This document shows positions 5,740 through 52,833 of a stretch of 53,746 bases of DNA, piece after piece. Position 1 is the stretch's first letter. Every line of letters begins with the position of its first letter. The stretch covers positions 1-53,746 of the forward strand of contig JAILFJ010000092.1 of the NCBI GenBank assembly GCA_024697625.1. The letters run 5' to 3'. Under the pieces are notes generated by a model, which saw nothing but the letters and a program-made list of their open reading frames with translations, was not told the origin of the DNA and searched no databases. A program made the position numbers and the translations under genes. This DNA is from Oscillospiraceae bacterium. GTDB taxonomy: Bacteria; Bacillota; Clostridia; Oscillospirales; Oscillospiraceae.

Positions 5740-7584
5740 TTACTGCTTGTCGTCGTCGACGACCGTGTAATCCGCGTCGTAGTAATCCTGTCCGTTCGGA
5801 GCCGTTCCCTGCGGGCCGCCGGCCTGAGAGGGATCAAAGCCCTGTGCTCCGCCTGCCTGCTGATAGAGCTTCTCAGACATCTTGTAGAAGACCTGAGTCA
5901 GTTCCTCTGTCGCAGACTTGATCGCCGCGCTGTCAGTGCCGGTCAGGGCCTGCTTCAGCGCCGCCAGCTTGCTCTCAGCCTCCGCCTTGTCCGCGGGATC
6001 CAGCTTGTCGCCAAGCTCGGACATCGTCTTCTCGGTCTGATAGGCCATCTGGTCGCCCTGGTTGCGGATCTCGACCTCTTCCTTGCGCTTGGCGTCCTCG
6101 GCAGCGTACATCTCCGCTTCCTTGACAGCCTTGTCGATGTCCTCCTTGGACATGTTGGACGATGCCGTGATGGTGATATGCTGCTCCTTGCCGGTGCCGA
6201 GATCCTTGGCCGAGACGTTTACGATGCCGTTTGCGTCGATGTCAAAGGTAACCTCGATCTGAGGCACACCGCGGCGCGCCGGGGCGATACCGTCAAGGTT
6301 GAAGCGTCCGAGGCTCTTGTTGTAGGCCGCCATCTCGCGCTCGCCCTGCAGGACGTTGACCTCAACGGAGGTCTGGTTGTCCGCGGCGGTGGAGAAGACC
6401 TGGCTCTTGCGGGTCGGGATGGAGGTGTTGCGCTCGATCAGTCTGGTGCAGACGCCGCCGAGGGTCTCGATGCCGAGGGACAGCGGGGTAACGTCGACCA
6501 GAACGATGCCTTCCTTATCGCCGGAGAGTACGCCGCCCTGGATGGCCGCGCCGATCGCGACGCATTCGTCGGGGTTGATGCCCTTGAAGCCTTCCTTGCC
6601 GATCAGGGACTTGACCATGTCCTGCACAGCCGGGATACGGGTGGAACCGCCGACCAGCAGAACCTTGCTGATGTCGCTGGGCTGCAGTCCGGAGTCGGAG
6701 AGCGCCTGCTTCACGGGGCCGGTGGTCTTCTCGACCAGGTGATGGGTCAGTTCGTTGAACTTGGCGCGGGTCAGAGTGACGTCAAGGTGCTTCGGGCCGG
6801 TGGCATCCGCCGTGATGTACGGCAGATTGACGTTCGAGGTCGTGACGCCGGAGAGCTCGATCTTCGCCTTCTCGGCAGCTTCGCGCAGACGCTGCATGGC
6901 AACCTTGTCTGTCGAGAGGTCGATTCCCTCGGTCTTCTTGAACTCGTCAACCAGGTACTTGGTGATGCAGGCGTCGAAGTCGTCGCCGCCGAGGCGGTTG
7001 TTGCCTGCCGTAGCCAGAACGTCGATGACGCCGTCGCCGATCTCCAGAACAGAGACATCGAAGGTGCCGCCGCCCAGGTCATAGACCATGATGCGCTGCT
7101 CCTGTTCCTTATCCACGCCGTAGGCGAGGGCTGCAGCAGTCGGCTCGTTGATGATACGCTTGACGTCCAGGCCTGCGATCTTGCCGGCGTCCTTGGTCGC
7201 CTGGCGCTGTGCATCCGTGAAGTAGGCCGGGACCGTGATGACGGCCTCGGTCACCGTCTGGCCCAGATAGGCCTCGGCATCCGCCTTCAGCTTCTGCAGC
7301 ACCATTGCCGAAATCTCCTGAGGCGTGTAGGCCTTGCTGTCGATGGTCACCTTATAATTGGAACCCATCTCGCGCTTGATGGAGGAGATGGTGCGGTCAG
7401 GATTGGTGACAGCCTGACGCTTTGCAACCTGGCCTACCATACGCTCGCCGGTCTTGGCAAAAGCCACGACGGACGGTGTGGTACGGGCGCCTTCTGCGTT
7501 TGCGATGACGACGGGCTCGCCGCCTTCAAGCACGGCAACGCAGCTGTTGGTAGTTCCAAGATCAATACCGATAATCTTACCCAT
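5740..7584 (-). CDS. dnaK: molecular chaperone DnaK (Hsp70)
   Basis: 614 residues from ATG 7584 after AGGAGG. The N-terminal ATPase domain (1-about 360) starts [17 protein letters not shown] and contains the phosphate-binding [12 protein letters not shown] and the adenosine-binding [13 protein letters not shown]. The substrate-binding domain follows ([14 protein letters not shown] at the linker), then the helical lid and an acidic tail ([10 protein letters not shown]). It works with DnaJ and GrpE encoded in the same operon to fold and disaggregate proteins. Slightly shorter than Escherichia coli DnaK, as usual for Gram-positive homologues. Confidence 0.99.
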
Positions 7585-48474: not shown

Positions 48475-48525
48475 AAAGAACCTGGCACACTGCGCAGCCT
48501 GCATCTGTGTCAGGTTCTTTTCTTT
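48475..48525 (+). terminator. terminator after the 69-residue gene
   Basis: Stem 48475-48488 with 48507-48520 (13 of 14 pairs) followed by TCTTTCT. A shorter hairpin CCGCTGTC/GACAGCGG lies just upstream (about 48435-48457). Confidence 0.8.
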
Positions 48526-48674
48526 CTCTGATTTATCTGATTGCTTCGCTGCTTCCTCAGCATCGTGAACCCGCTTTCCCTGACGTATGGATACACATAC
48601 GTCTGCCGGAAGAATCGGGAACGCGTCTGCGGTTTCTGGGTAACACCTTCGCCGGAAAGGAGAAAACGCACAAC

Positions 48675-49535
48675 ATGAAAAGAACAGCGACTCTCTTTCT
48701 CGTAACCGTTCTCATGCTGGCATCGCTCATGGGCTCCTGCGCAGCAGAAGAGAACAGCGCAGAGGAAATCTGGATCGACGGCAGCCTGGGAAAGCTGTAC
48801 GGGATTCTGGAGCTGCCGGATACGGATGCTCCGTTCCCCCTGATCATACTGTCTCACGGCTTCGACGGGACCCACGCCGACAAGCAGGATTATGCAGACT
48901 GGTTTGTGGAGCAGGGCTTCGCCGTCTGCAGCCTGGACTTCTGCGGCGGTGGTACAGGATCCAGAAGTGCCGGGACCATGCTGGAGATGAGCGTGCTGAC
49001 AGAGGCGGAAGATCTGAACGCCGTGATAGACCACTTCCTGGGAGATCCGCGGCTCAGCTGCATCATGCTGTGGGGATCGAGCCAGGGTGGGCTTGTCAGC
49101 GGATACGTATCCGCCCAGCGGCCGGAGGATATCCGCGCAGTCGTGCTGGAATTCCCGGCCATTGTCATTCCGGATCTGGTAAAGGAGATGGCGAACCCGG
49201 ACGGCAGCTTTCCGGAAAGCGCGCAGCTCAAGGGCGTCACGGTCGGCCGCAGGTATATGGAGGATGCAGCCTCTGTTGACTACTATGCGCACATCGCCTC
49301 CTATACCGGTCCGGTCTTGATTCTGCACGGAGATGAGGACCCCCTTGTCCCCCTGCGCTATTCCCTGCAGGCTCAGGAGACCTACAGCTATGCCGAGCTG
49401 ATCGTCTATCCCCGACAGGGTCATGGCTTTACCGGGCAGGCCCGGGATAACGCGAAGGCGGCAGAGGCAGCCTACTTCCGATATTGGTCAGAAGCCTCCG
49501 AAGAGGAATACGGATTGCTCTCTTCTGCAGCCTGA
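48675..49535 (+). CDS. exported alpha/beta hydrolase
   Basis: 286 residues from ATG 48675 after AAAGGAG; 56 further open codons upstream run through the terminator and are rejected. N-terminal signal MKRTATLFLVTVLMLASLMGSC; the Cys after GS could be a lipid attachment site, although the box is atypical. Oxyanion strand PLIILSHGFDGTHADK, nucleophile WGSSQGGLVSGY (Ser near 137), acid in LILHGDEDPLVP and His in RQGHGFTG. This is a serine hydrolase of the dienelactone hydrolase/BAAT-like type acting outside the membrane; substrate unknown. A perfect bidirectional terminator follows. Confidence 0.85.
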   Translation: MKRTATLFLVTVLMLASLMGSCAAEENSAEEIWIDGSLGKLYGILELPDTDAPFPLIILSHGFDGTHADKQDYADWFVEQGFAVCSLDFCGGGTGSRSAGTMLEMSVLTEAEDLNAVIDHFLGDPRLSCIMLWGSSQGGLVSGYVSAQRPEDIRAVVLEFPAIVIPDLVKEMANPDGSFPESAQLKGVTVGRRYMEDAASVDYYAHIASYTGPVLILHGDEDPLVPLRYSLQAQETYSYAELIVYPRQGHGFTGQARDNAKAAEAAYFRYWSEASEEEYGLLSSAA

Positions 49536-49572: not shown

Positions 49573-49618
49573 ATAAACAAAGTACACCGTCGTTCACAGA
49601 CCGGTGTACTTTGTTTAT
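49573..49618. terminator. bidirectional terminator, perfect 17-bp stem
   Basis: ATAAACAAAGTACACCG (49573-49589) and its exact complement (49602-49618) around a 12-nt loop. AT-rich arms give T-rich tails on both strands, suiting the two convergent operons. Confidence 0.9.
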
Positions 49619-49670: not shown

Positions 49671-51098
49671 TCATCCGATATACTGCTTTGCCGTTTCAAG
49701 GAGGGCTCCGTAGAGGAGCTTGCCGGCTTCATTGGTCGGAAAATCGTCGATCCGGACGACCTGGAATACGGGCCGGACGACACTGATCTTCTGCCTGACG
49801 TAATCCTGAACCGCTGCTCTGTCCTCGTCGTTCAGGACAAAGATGACCAGGTGGTCGTCCGTGCCCGAGCTTACGGATCGAATATGGATATCGTTCATGA
49901 TCCTCTCGTCAATCTCATCGAGACTGACCCGGTGGCCTGACACCTTGATAAACCGCTTGAGCCGGCCGGTAATATACAGGAAACCGTCCTCGTCCCGTTC
50001 GGCGAGGTCGCCGGTATGCAGCTCACCCTGCCAGTCGTCCCCCCGGCTGAGATCCTGCCCGCAGGCAGCGTATCCGAGGGCCACGTTCCCTCCGCGGTAG
50101 ACCAGTTCACCCGGGACGCGAACTTCTTCAACGGGATTGCCGTCCGTATTGATCAGTGTGATCTTTCCTTCCGGGACGGCGATGCCCACCGAGCCCGGTT
50201 TCTCCAGCGCCTTCTCGGCAGGCAGATAGCTGACCGCCGCCGTGGCTTCGCACTGACCGTACATGACGACAAAACGCTTGCCATACTCCGCAGCGTACTG
50301 TGCAAAGGTTCTGTGAAGCTCCCTGCTGAGCCTGCTGCCGGCCTGCGTCATGAGTCTGAGGTCCGGGAAATCCTCACAGAACAAGTCCATCCGGTAAAGC
50401 ATGTCATAGGTGTTGGATACGCCGTGGAAGACGGTCACATGTTCGTTTTCGAACAGATCCCAGAATTCCTCGTCCAGGATGCCCCTGTCCGTTACGATCA
50501 TCGCGCCTCCGACCGTCAGGCTCGCGCCGATGACGGAGAGAGCATAAGTATAGTTCAGCGGCAGCGCGGTGATCGTGCGCTCCGCGTCGGTCATGCCAAG
50601 ATACTCCGCTATGACCCGGGAGTTGATGCGTATATTGTCCCAGGACTGCCGGACAAATTTGACCGAGCCGGTGGAACCGGAGGTGGTCAGCAGCTGGCCG
50701 AGTGCCGGGTGGATCGGGTACAGCTCGGGGTAGCTTGTCCGGAGCAGTACGTAATCATCGATCGTTCGCAGCTCCTGCAGGTGCGGATAATCGTCACGCA
50801 GCGACCGGGGCGCAAAGACCAGCCCGGGCCGGTAGGTGTTCATGATCTGCCTGCGCATCTCTTCGGGCAGCGCCGCCGAAACCATCAGCATCGGGAATCC
50901 GCCGTTTAAGAGCGCGGCGTAGCCCGACAGTGCACCGATGCTGTTTTCGCAGAGCATCATGGTCAGCCGGCCGGAGTCGAGTGTCTTGGACAGCTCGTTC
51001 TGCAGCATCTCCAGCTCATCATAACGCACAGTGACGCCGGTATCGTCGATCAGCGCAGCTTTCCTTCCAAACGTGCCAAAGTCCCATATCCTGTTCAT
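49671..51098 (-). CDS. stand-alone AMP-forming acyl/aminoacyl adenylating enzyme
   Basis: 475 residues. ANL superfamily with all core motifs: P-loop LLTTSGSTGSVKFV (about 134-147), VMYGQCEATAAVSYLP (A5-like), LHTGDLAERDEDGFLYITGRLKRFIKVSGHRVSLDEIDE (A7-A8) and the catalytic Lys in PTNEAGKLLYGALLE (A10). It is a little short for an acyl-CoA synthetase and has no carrier domain of its own. Family logic: activate a carboxylic or amino acid as the adenylate and load it onto a phosphopantetheine thiol. The upstream gene supplies a carrier domain and overlaps it by 4 bp, so it is the likely partner. The substrate cannot be read safely. Confidence 0.9.
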   Translation of the reverse strand: MNRIWDFGTFGRKAALIDDTGVTVRYDELEMLQNELSKTLDSGRLTMMLCENSIGALSGYAALLNGGFPMLMVSAALPEEMRRQIMNTYRPGLVFAPRSLRDDYPHLQELRTIDDYVLLRTSYPELYPIHPALGQLLTTSGSTGSVKFVRQSWDNIRINSRVIAEYLGMTDAERTITALPLNYTYALSVIGASLTVGGAMIVTDRGILDEEFWDLFENEHVTVFHGVSNTYDMLYRMDLFCEDFPDLRLMTQAGSRLSRELHRTFAQYAAEYGKRFVVMYGQCEATAAVSYLPAEKALEKPGSVGIAVPEGKITLINTDGNPVEEVRVPGELVYRGGNVALGYAACGQDLSRGDDWQGELHTGDLAERDEDGFLYITGRLKRFIKVSGHRVSLDEIDERIMNDIHIRSVSSGTDDHLVIFVLNDEDRAAVQDYVRQKISVVRPVFQVVRIDDFPTNEAGKLLYGALLETAKQYIG

Positions 51099-52036
51099 TG
51101 TCCGTTTCCTCCGTCCGTCTGCTCCAGTTTGCTTCTGACCATTCTGAGCCCGTCGGCGTAGGATTTCAGACGCATCGCCTCACGGCCCCTGAAGGAGACA
51201 TGAAACGCCTCTTCGAGCCTGCTGATCAGCGTCATATGCGTCAGCGAATCCCAGCCGCTGTCGTGATAGTGGAAGCTGACAGGATTGAAATCCACCCCTT
51301 CAAAGCAGCCGGAGAACACCTCCCAATAACGCTCCGGAATACTCTTTGCCGCAGCCTCCGCGTCCTTCTGCGCCGATTCCAGCACCTTGCTTGGCGCATA
51401 GACGGCCGACTGTGCGCCGTCTCCAGAGATCCGGGCCGGGTTTCCGATCACCGTGACGCAGTCGGGTACGTCCTCAAACACAGCGGCGCCCAGAGCAACG
51501 ACGCTGGATGCGCCGATCCGGATGCGGTCCCTGAGCAGTGCGCCCGCGCCGATAAAAGCGTTTGTGCCGATCACGGTGTGACCCCCGACAAAGGCATTGA
51601 CCCCCAGGCGGGTATGGTCTCCCACAGCGGCGTCATGCCCGACGGAGGCGTTTCTGGAGAGATAGCAGTTTTTGCCGACCTTCGCCAGCGAGCCCACAAA
51701 GACGCCCTGGCAGACGACACTTCCCTCCCCGACCTCGGCATCCGGGCTGATCTCGGCGGAGCTGTGTACGAGCACCGCTCCCTGATATCCCGCGCGGGTC
51801 ATCCGCTCGAAAGCCTCGCGCCGGAACTTCGGCTCTCCGATAGATACGACAAAGCGCGCCTGGTCCGGGGCATAACGTGCGCGAAACTGCTGGAAGCGGC
51901 AGACCGGGCAGCCGGAAAGCTCTTCGGTGTCCGCATGGTCGTCGATAAAGACAGCCTGGGACCACGCGCCGCTCTCGTCTGCGATCTGTTTGAATTCGCG
52001 GCCCATCGCCCCCGCGCCGTATAACGCAAGAATCAT
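51095..52036 (-). CDS. PglD/NeuD-like acyltransferase fused to an acyl carrier domain
   Basis: 313 residues. Residues 1-about 75: Rossmann-like N domain (LALYGAGAMGREFKQIAD). Residues about 90-200: left-handed beta-helix of hexapeptide repeats (AEISPDAEVGEGSVVCQGVFVG ... IGTNAFIGAGALLRDRIRIG), with the catalytic His-Asp in SVGHDAAVG (His134) and the end motif IGNPARI. Residues about 233-305: an acyl carrier fold with the phosphopantetheine Ser in GWDSLTHMTL (Ser264). PglD-type enzymes acylate amino sugars using acyl-CoA; a fused carrier could let this enzyme take its acyl group from a loaded carrier instead. Coupled by 4-bp overlaps to the HD gene before it and the adenylating enzyme after it. 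Confidence 0.9.
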   Translation of the reverse strand: MILALYGAGAMGREFKQIADESGAWSQAVFIDDHADTEELSGCPVCRFQQFRARYAPDQARFVVSIGEPKFRREAFERMTRAGYQGAVLVHSSAEISPDAEVGEGSVVCQGVFVGSLAKVGKNCYLSRNASVGHDAAVGDHTRLGVNAFVGGHTVIGTNAFIGAGALLRDRIRIGASSVVALGAAVFEDVPDCVTVIGNPARISGDGAQSAVYAPSKVLESAQKDAEAAAKSIPERYWEVFSGCFEGVDFNPVSFHYHDSGWDSLTHMTLISRLEEAFHVSFRGREAMRLKSYADGLRMVRSKLEQTDGGNGQ

Positions 52037-52833
52037 GTATTTCCCTCCAGCTCCAAGAATTTTTCTATTTCCTCACGCACAATGCGGAGCTGTTTTCTCT
52101 CCCTCTCACTCCACAGCGCGTTTCCGTCCTCATCATATTCACTCAGCAGGCGGCTAAGACAGCCCTGCTCCCGTACGATGCGCAGGCTCTCCGGGTATAC
52201 CAGCTCAAAGGCCATGCAGCAGTGAGAGACGTGTCCTTCGAAGCGTGTTTTCCGAATCTCTCTGGGTACACAGCAATGCTCACGCACACAGTCCATCACC
52301 GCGTCGCTCGCCTCCCCTTCCCGGATCAGACCTTTACTTGTTCCGATGCGCTGCTCAAAGGGCAGCTCCGAAACCACGCGGAAGATGTCAGCCTTGTCTG
52401 CGTCCCGTATGATATTGCAGAAGCAACGGGTCGGTCCGTCCAGATCAGTGGGCAGGGTAAGCTTATTGTGAAGCCGGATCGCCTTCTCCAGGACGCGCAG
52501 CCACTCTTCCGTAAGCGCCTCAGCGGGAAAATCCCCGATCAGTCCCTCCTGAAACAGCAGATCCGCGCCGAATTCGGCATGATCTACCGAGACAGAATCA
52601 ATAAAAGTCCCGTATCTGCGCACCTGCTCAAAGCGTCCGATGTCGTGGAGCAGTCCCAGGAACCACGCGAAGCGCACGGACTCATCCCCAAGATCAAGAC
52701 TCTCCGCAATCCGCTCACAGTTTTCGGCAACCCGCATGGTATGCTCTACCTTGTGGCGGATCATGACGTTGTCCGCATCATAACGGGAGGTATAGGTATA
52801 GAACGCCTCTTCGGCACGCTTTTTTTCAATCAT
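52033..52833 (-). CDS. HD-domain phosphohydrolase
   Basis: 266 residues from ATG 52833 after AAGGAG; a longer frame upstream is rejected. HD motif: His31 (VEHTMRVAENCERIAE), His63-Asp64 (LLHDIGRFEQ) and a later Asp in RDADKADIFR. DHAEFGADLL and IRLHNKLTLPT are typical of the stand-alone HD group of Clostridia. HD proteins hydrolyse phosphate esters, often nucleotides or second messengers. First gene of the three-gene operon; its link to the acyl carrier genes is not explained by known biology. Confidence 0.85.
   Translation of the reverse strand: MIEKKRAEEAFYTYTSRYDADNVMIRHKVEHTMRVAENCERIAESLDLGDESVRFAWFLGLLHDIGRFEQVRRYGTFIDSVSVDHAEFGADLLFQEGLIGDFPAEALTEEWLRVLEKAIRLHNKLTLPTDLDGPTRCFCNIIRDADKADIFRVVSELPFEQRIGTSKGLIREGEASDAVMDCVREHCCVPREIRKTRFEGHVSHCCMAFELVYPESLRIVREQGCLSRLLSEYDEDGNALWSERERKQLRIVREEIEKFLELEGNT

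What the first reader, a model, noticed from the sequence alone, without database searches (positions are those of the whole stretch)
49671..52833. Three-gene HD / acyltransferase-ACP / adenylating enzyme operon
Seen: three minus-strand genes joined by 4-bp overlaps. One encodes a PglD/NeuD-type left-handed beta-helix acyltransferase whose C terminus is an acyl carrier domain (Ser264 in GWDSL); the next encodes a complete stand-alone adenylating enzyme; the first encodes an HD phosphohydrolase. Family knowledge: PglD enzymes use acyl-CoA, and adenylating enzymes load carriers. Inference: the adenylating enzyme charges the fused carrier, which hands the acyl or aminoacyl group to the acyltransferase active site on the same chain, modifying a sugar or nucleotide, with the HD protein acting on a phosphorylated substrate or signal. 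No glycosyltransferase or sugar-nucleotide gene is nearby, which makes the target unclear.
Basis: partly seen in the sequence, partly recalled or inferred. Interest (0 to 1): 0.75.

Follow-up and report, generated by a model that had tools for sequence, protein, structure and literature searches.

The report
Acyltransferase with its own built-in carrier
Three neighbouring genes, kept together in about twenty genome assemblies of mostly rumen and gut Clostridia, encode an HD-domain protein, a sugar-acyltransferase-type enzyme fused to a carrier-type domain, and an acid-activating type of ligase; the ligase is predicted to load an acid onto the fused carrier, which would hand it to the transferase, likely to acylate a nucleotide-linked sugar.

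Summary
In detail: three minus-strand genes with two 4-bp overlaps encode a PglD/NeuD-type transferase with a C-terminal carrier domain (Ser264), a complete adenylating enzyme and an HD protein. It is no strain oddity: the ligase adjoins the fusion in 21 of 22 other genome loci and HD lies directly upstream in 19 of 22. Ser264 and the catalytic-type His134 are invariant in 70 of 70 aligned fusions; the carrier models as an ACP fold.

New evidence for the mechanism: relatives of this ligase (36-46% identical) without the fusion have a free carrier gene beside or near them. A profile of the fused carrier finds one in 14 of 14 loci, 11 clearly and 3 weakly, nine directly adjacent. Several of those loci look like surface-glycan or dlt-like clusters. 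So the operon looks like a ligase/carrier pair whose carrier was fused to a PglD-type transferase. The ligase lacks the Asp of amino-acid-activating domains. A dedicated carrier feeding a PglD homologue has been proposed in Flavobacterium (PMC6519341); no listing of my paper searches described the fusion. Acid, acceptor and HD role are unknown.

The parts
52033..52833 (-). HD-domain protein, 266 aa; six metal-ligand-type positions H31, H63, D64, H85, H122, D146
   Evidence: PF01966 39.2 bits; positions invariant in 18 of 18; AF2 model mean pLDDT 88.6
51095..52036 (-). PglD/NeuD-type left-handed beta-helix acyltransferase (about residues 1-203) joined by a linker to an acyl carrier domain (about 228-307; Ser264)
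51116..51355 (-). carrier domain portion (residues 228-307 of the fusion)
   Evidence: helices 233-243, 264-278, 284-289, 293-307; PF00550 18.9 and 21.5 bits
49671..51098 (-). stand-alone adenylating ligase, 475 aa, with TSGSTG loop, YGQxEAT, TGD, GR and C-terminal Lys460
   Evidence: PF00501 129.6 bits; 15 of 17 motif and pocket positions checked have one residue in all 19 ligases, among them Lys460; T138 and K147 in 18 of 19
49573..49618 (.). perfect 17-bp inverted repeat, 12-nt loop, between the convergent operon and hydrolase gene; terminator-like
   Evidence: RNA fold z -5.30; not listed by the consensus terminator scan, which allows loops of 3-8 only
48507..49535 (+). alpha/beta hydrolase (S9/S33-like), likely exported; the start is likely an internal ATG giving 286 aa with a signal-peptide-like stretch; convergent with the operon
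   Evidence: Pfam; homologue beside the operon in 8 of 22 loci, in other orientations; signal peptide judged by eye

Best explanation
The operon encodes an adenylating-type ligase that is predicted to activate a carboxylic acid and load it onto the carrier domain fused to a PglD/NeuD-type transferase, which would then likely transfer the acyl group to an amino group of a nucleotide-linked sugar. Shown by sequence: the fusion, the complete ligase, the invariant carrier serine and catalytic-type histidine, conserved gene order, and the presence of free homologous carriers near related ligases. Inferred: phosphopantetheinylation of Ser264, charging by this ligase, acyl transfer from carrier to transferase within one chain or trimer, and the sugar acceptor (UDP is hinted at by the invariant Asp32-Asp33). 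The HD protein is a conserved partner with a dinuclear-type ligand set; that it trims a nucleotide or phosphate from a pathway intermediate is a guess. In some relatives an ABC exporter and a hydrolase with a signal-peptide-like start suggest that the product leaves the cell.
For: Gene order: ligase next to the fusion in 21 of 22 loci, HD directly upstream in 19 of 22. Free carriers near ligase relatives: 14 of 14 loci, 11 at E below 1e-3; of 7 own-genome carrier-like places given as controls one is hit, at 0.0073. Ser264 70/70, His134 70/70. Model: ACP-type helices with S264 at the start of helix II. Own genome has two PPTase-type genes. A dedicated carrier feeding a PglD homologue is proposed for F. 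psychrophilum WfpG/WfpD (PMC6519341, one passage); carriers, CoA ligases, LuxE, LuxC and NeuD are each listed among flagellin-island genes (PMC4875605, passages).
Against: No glycosyltransferase or sugar-nucleotide family turned up among the recurring neighbours scanned (29 neighbour proteins; one GT8 gene, in L034 only), nor in the 20 window frames. PF00550 score sits at the cut-off. Three of the 14 free carriers (E 0.039, 0.047, 0.18) score below the own housekeeping-type ACP (0.0073). The carrier tree is weak. The GGHG histidine of PglB and VioB is Met11 here (66 of 70). Use of CoA is not excluded. HD is missing beside the fusion in L030 and L033, although in the L030 genome it lies on another contig. 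All 22 records are, by their titles, uncultured or metagenome-assembled, some of them near-copies.
Confidence: 0.57

Rival explanations
1. The ligase loads the carrier as described, but the acceptor is not a nucleotide sugar: the transferase makes a small exported acyl-amide or acyl-ester metabolite, with the ABC protein as exporter.
For: ABC exporter directly upstream with a 4-bp overlap to HD in L029, L031, L034 and just before the fusion in L030; no sugar gene among the recurring neighbours scanned.
Against: The exporter is near the operon in only 7 of 22 loci; the transferase scores above the NeuD cut-off and keeps Asp32-Asp33 (70 of 70).
Confidence: 0.22
2. The transferase is an ordinary acetyl-CoA-dependent NeuD enzyme; the carrier domain serves another enzyme and is fused only for co-expression or scaffolding.
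For: Several solved relatives are titled as CoA or acetyl-CoA complexes; the linker 198-229 is below pLDDT 50 in the model.
Against: Besides the ligase no carrier-using enzyme was seen to recur in the operon; the carrier serine is kept in 70 of 70 aligned fusions.
Confidence: 0.12
3. The HD protein is the chemistry-defining step, a dinuclear-metal oxygenase or hydrolase that makes or releases the acid or the acceptor, and the other two genes conjugate its product.
For: Six-ligand H-HD-H-H-D set 18 of 18, which PMC8177086 (passages) reports for YqeK and for the oxygenases MIOX, PhnZ, TmpB.
Against: Gut anaerobes make an oxygenase unlikely (general knowledge); four solo HD homologues inspected, 44-50% identical, lie apart from any fusion or ligase (L117-L120; L117 is in a genome that also has the operon).
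Confidence: 0.08

Closest known systems
Flavobacterium psychrophilum WfpG (PglD homologue) with carrier WfpD (PMC6519341, one passage seen)
   Same: PglD-type transferase predicted to take an unusual acyl group from a dedicated carrier
   Different: there the carrier is a separate gene, with a fatty-acid-type pathway proposed, inside an O-polysaccharide cluster; here it is fused, paired with a ligase, and no glycan cluster was seen around it
PglD / PglB acetyltransferase domain / WeeI / VioB
   Same: N-terminal Rossmann-like domain plus left-handed beta-helix, catalytic-type His134
   Different: the solved chains (about 190-230 residues) end where the carrier begins here, and several are CoA complexes; Met11 replaces the GGHG histidine of PglB and VioB
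LpxA/LpxD
   Same: left-handed beta-helix acyltransferases named as acyl-ACP enzymes (molecule names; LpxD-ACP entry titles)
   Different: they use a separate carrier (recalled) and align here over the beta-helix mainly
DltA-DltC and dlt-like ligase/carrier/MBOAT loci such as L151
   Same: stand-alone ligase with a dedicated small carrier (DltA-DltC recalled); a 42%-identical relative of this ligase has a carrier and an MBOAT beside it
   Different: no MBOAT was found beside the window operon; no A4 Asp; carrier fused to a soluble-type transferase; far below the DltA cut-off
Flagellin glycosylation islands with Acp, CaiC, LuxE, LuxC, FabG and NeuD genes (PMC4875605, passages seen)
   Same: carriers and ligases in surface-glycan islands; relative L142 has LuxE, LuxC and a thioesterase near ligase and carrier
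   Different: large islands with glycosyltransferases; the passages seen do not put all these genes in one island and mention no fusion

Membership tests
NeuD/PglD sugar acyltransferases (TIGR03570) | score over the curated cut-off and PglD_N plus hexapeptide architecture | tested here: met
   185.1 vs 160.8 bits; PF17836 45 vs 23.4, PF00132 49 vs 27
NeuD/PglD sugar acyltransferases (TIGR03570) | fold and catalytic-type histidine | tested here: met
NeuD/PglD sugar acyltransferases (TIGR03570) | acts on a nucleotide-linked sugar | not testable with these tools
   -
Phosphopantetheine carrier domains (PF00550) | score over the curated cut-off | tested here: inconclusive
   18.9 and 21.5 vs 20.8 bits
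Phosphopantetheine carrier domains (PF00550) | attachment serine at the start of helix II in an ACP-type fold | tested here: met
Phosphopantetheine carrier domains (PF00550) | carries phosphopantetheine | not testable with these tools
   two PPTase-type genes in the genome
ANL adenylating enzymes (PF00501) | score over cut-off and core motif residues | tested here: met
   129.6 vs 29.9 bits; core residues 18-19 of 19
Amino-acid-activating A domains | A4 aspartate that binds the alpha-amino group | tested here: not met
   the Asp of LgrA falls on Thr184 (first domain) or on residue 186 (second domain); residues 178-190 hold no acidic residue in 19 of 19
DltA (TIGR01734) | score over the equivalog cut-off | tested here: not met
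   73.3 vs 559.85 bits
Exosortase-associated ligase (TIGR03098) | score over the cut-off | tested here: not met
   142.1 vs 592.35 bits
HD superfamily (PF01966) | score and HD ligand set | tested here: met
   39.2 vs 22 bits; six ligand positions 18/18
HD phosphohydrolase | hydrolysis of a phosphate ester or anhydride | not testable with these tools
   the six-ligand motif is shared with HD oxygenases (PMC8177086)

The most novel reading that the evidence does not exclude
A self-loading sugar acyltransferase: a two-protein acid-to-sugar machine in which the PglD-type enzyme carries its own swinging arm, evolved by fusing the free carrier of a dlt/glycan-type ligase pair onto the transferase, and now working outside any glycan cluster to make an exported acylated amino-sugar product of rumen Clostridia, with a dinuclear HD enzyme as the third step.
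Probability: 0.26. Interest if true: 0.72.

Novelty: new variant of a known kind. Interest (0 to 1): 0.56.

Why it matters
If true, it shows how a thioester-carrier logic known from dlt and surface-glycan acylation was compressed into one polypeptide, gives a simple handle (ligase plus one fused enzyme) for putting chosen acids on nucleotide sugars, and points to an undescribed acylated product made by several groups of rumen and gut Clostridia.

Full report
OBSERVATION. The three frames, their strand, coordinates and two 4-bp ATGA overlaps are as described. Domain scans: P0003 HD; P0002 PglD_N, Hexapep and a borderline PP-binding match, TIGR03570 over its cut-off; P0001 AMP-binding. The window is a whole contig of a 181-contig assembly, 89% complete. 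An IS1634-type fragment marks the upstream contig end (96.5 bits against a cut-off of 100).

THE OPERON IS CONSERVED. A scan of one genome per GTDB species gave 25 loci; 22 (L029-L050) hold a full or nearly full fusion, L051 holds 48 residues at a contig end, and L052 and L053 (27 and 32% over parts) were dropped. Among the 22, the ligase follows directly in 21 (52-74% identical to the window's) and HD precedes directly in 19; L030 and L033 lack HD there; L050 is a decayed copy. Of 20 loci whose fusion-ligase junction I listed, 10 have the 4-bp overlap, eight a gap of 2-24 bp, two of 86 and 189 bp (L030 and L050 were not in that list). Several rows are near-copies (L035/L038, L036/L037, L047/L048), so the independent number is smaller. 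In the genus (102 genomes) the fusion occurs in 8, own genome included, plus one cut by a contig end; the G475 match is flagged with one TGA. The ligase occurs in the same 9 (in G053 as a part on another contig) plus G465, HD in the same 9 plus 8 lower-scoring genomes. In the order sample 1 of 394 genomes, the own one, passes E 1e-60. So the operon is patchy and mostly kept as a unit; Butyrivibrio-labelled loci (L047, L048) also have it.

NEIGHBOURS. An alpha/beta hydrolase (GxSQG) with a signal-peptide-like start lies upstream in seven loci, downstream in L040 and convergent in the window: 8 of 22 plus the window. An ABC exporter with an N-terminal extension of about 150 residues without Pfam match lies directly upstream in L029, L030, L031, L034 and nearby in L043, L046, L050: 7 of 22. 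A CitMHS/DASS-type anion transporter occurs in 10 of 22, in three arrangements. None of the three is universal. Of 29 neighbour proteins scanned with Pfam (not every neighbour), one is a glycosyltransferase (GT8, L034).

WHAT THE LIGASE DOES. Core motif residues are kept in 18-19 of 19 ligases. In the profile alignment with LgrA the A4 aspartate that holds the alpha-amino group falls on Thr184 in one domain and on residue 186 in the other; residues 178-190 hold no acidic residue in 19 of 19, so the conclusion does not hang on the register. By curated cut-offs it is neither DltA nor the exosortase-associated ligase. Ligase relatives outside the fusion: one in the genus (G465, 36%) and 13 in the order sample of 394 (39-46%). 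In all 14 loci a profile built from the fused carriers finds a small carrier-like frame: 11 at E below 1e-3 (eight below 1e-6), three weaker (0.039, 0.047, 0.18); nine lie directly next to the ligase, the others about 0.6 to 5.5 kb away. Of seven own-genome carrier-like places given as controls one was hit, the housekeeping-type ACP, at 0.0073, which is better than the three weak ones. The eight best free carriers share WDS and a later S/T-Y/F..G pattern with the fused ones (by eye). G465's locus has KASIII, a bacterial sugar transferase and a DegT aminotransferase (Pfam) and, by eye, FabD, SDRs, a carboxyltransferase and a flippase. L142 has LuxE, LuxC and a thioesterase; L151 has an MBOAT, and similar frames recur by eye beside L146, L147 and L150. 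This is the main support for the ligase-carrier link.

ACCEPTOR. The NeuD-family score, the fold and Asp32-Asp33 argue for a nucleotide sugar. In the alignments the pair is DD in PglB-ATD, WeeI and Pcryo_0637 and DN in VioB. Pcryo_0637 was solved with UDP and VioB with a TDP-sugar (titles); that PglB and WeeI use UDP-sugars is recalled. Four structures give only a hint. Met11 replaces the His of GGHG in PglB-ATD and VioB; WeeI and Pcryo_0637 also lack it. The parts of the window scanned hold arginine biosynthesis, SRP, tRNA and rRNA methylation and 2-hydroxyacyl-CoA dehydratase genes, no sugar gene (20 frames, not all).

HD. H31, H63, D64, H85, H122 and D146 are invariant in 18. PMC8177086 (passages) calls the six-residue motif diagnostic of a dinuclear site and reports it for the phosphatase YqeK and for HD oxygenases. 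Four solo homologues inspected, 44-50% identical, lie apart from any fusion or ligase, one of them in a genome that also has the operon. I therefore do not call it a phosphohydrolase as a fact.

COMPARISON AND NOVELTY. A PglD homologue predicted to use a dedicated carrier is published for F. psychrophilum (PMC6519341, one passage); carriers, ligases, LuxE/LuxC and NeuD are each listed for flagellin islands (PMC4875605, passages). I saw no description of the fusion, the ligase-fed route, the HD partner or the stand-alone operon in the listings. Verdict: new variant of a known kind.

Noticed in passing
window:14626-18519 (-): One 1297-aa frame matches carbamoyl-phosphate synthase large chain and, at its C-terminal end (two stretches, best 1175-1290), diaminopimelate epimerase: an apparent CarB-DapF fusion beside arginine genes.
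   Followed up: no
L029:7000-9204, L030, L031, L034, L043, L046, L050; own genome C118:42700-44691: ABC exporter family with an N-terminal extension of about 150 residues that has no Pfam match at E up to 1 (L029 member); by eye it resembles a GHKL/anti-sigma ATPase domain, untested.
   Followed up: partly
L047:1671-3043 and L048:7034-8409: The CitMHS-type transporter upstream of HD is split into two frames in both Butyrivibrio-labelled contigs, which are near-copies; recoding, split gene or shared frameshift not tested.
   Followed up: no
L050:9305-10906: HD joined in frame to a fusion protein without its first 21 residues, with a 66-residue ligase remnant, in a genome that also holds an intact operon (L041).
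   Followed up: partly
L044:680-2209 and L033:12487-13992: A protein family of about 500 aa, 70% identical between the two, sits beside the operon in two loci on different sides; secreted-looking by eye; the L044 member has no significant Pfam match.
   Followed up: no
window:5428-7605 (+) against 5740-7584 (-): A 725-aa frame scores 505 bits to Pfam NAD-GH but overlaps a 614-aa frame on the other strand; which strand is coding was not tested.
   Followed up: no
window:41989-44783 (-): Two overlapping genes of 2-hydroxyglutaryl-CoA dehydratase D-component type.
   Followed up: no
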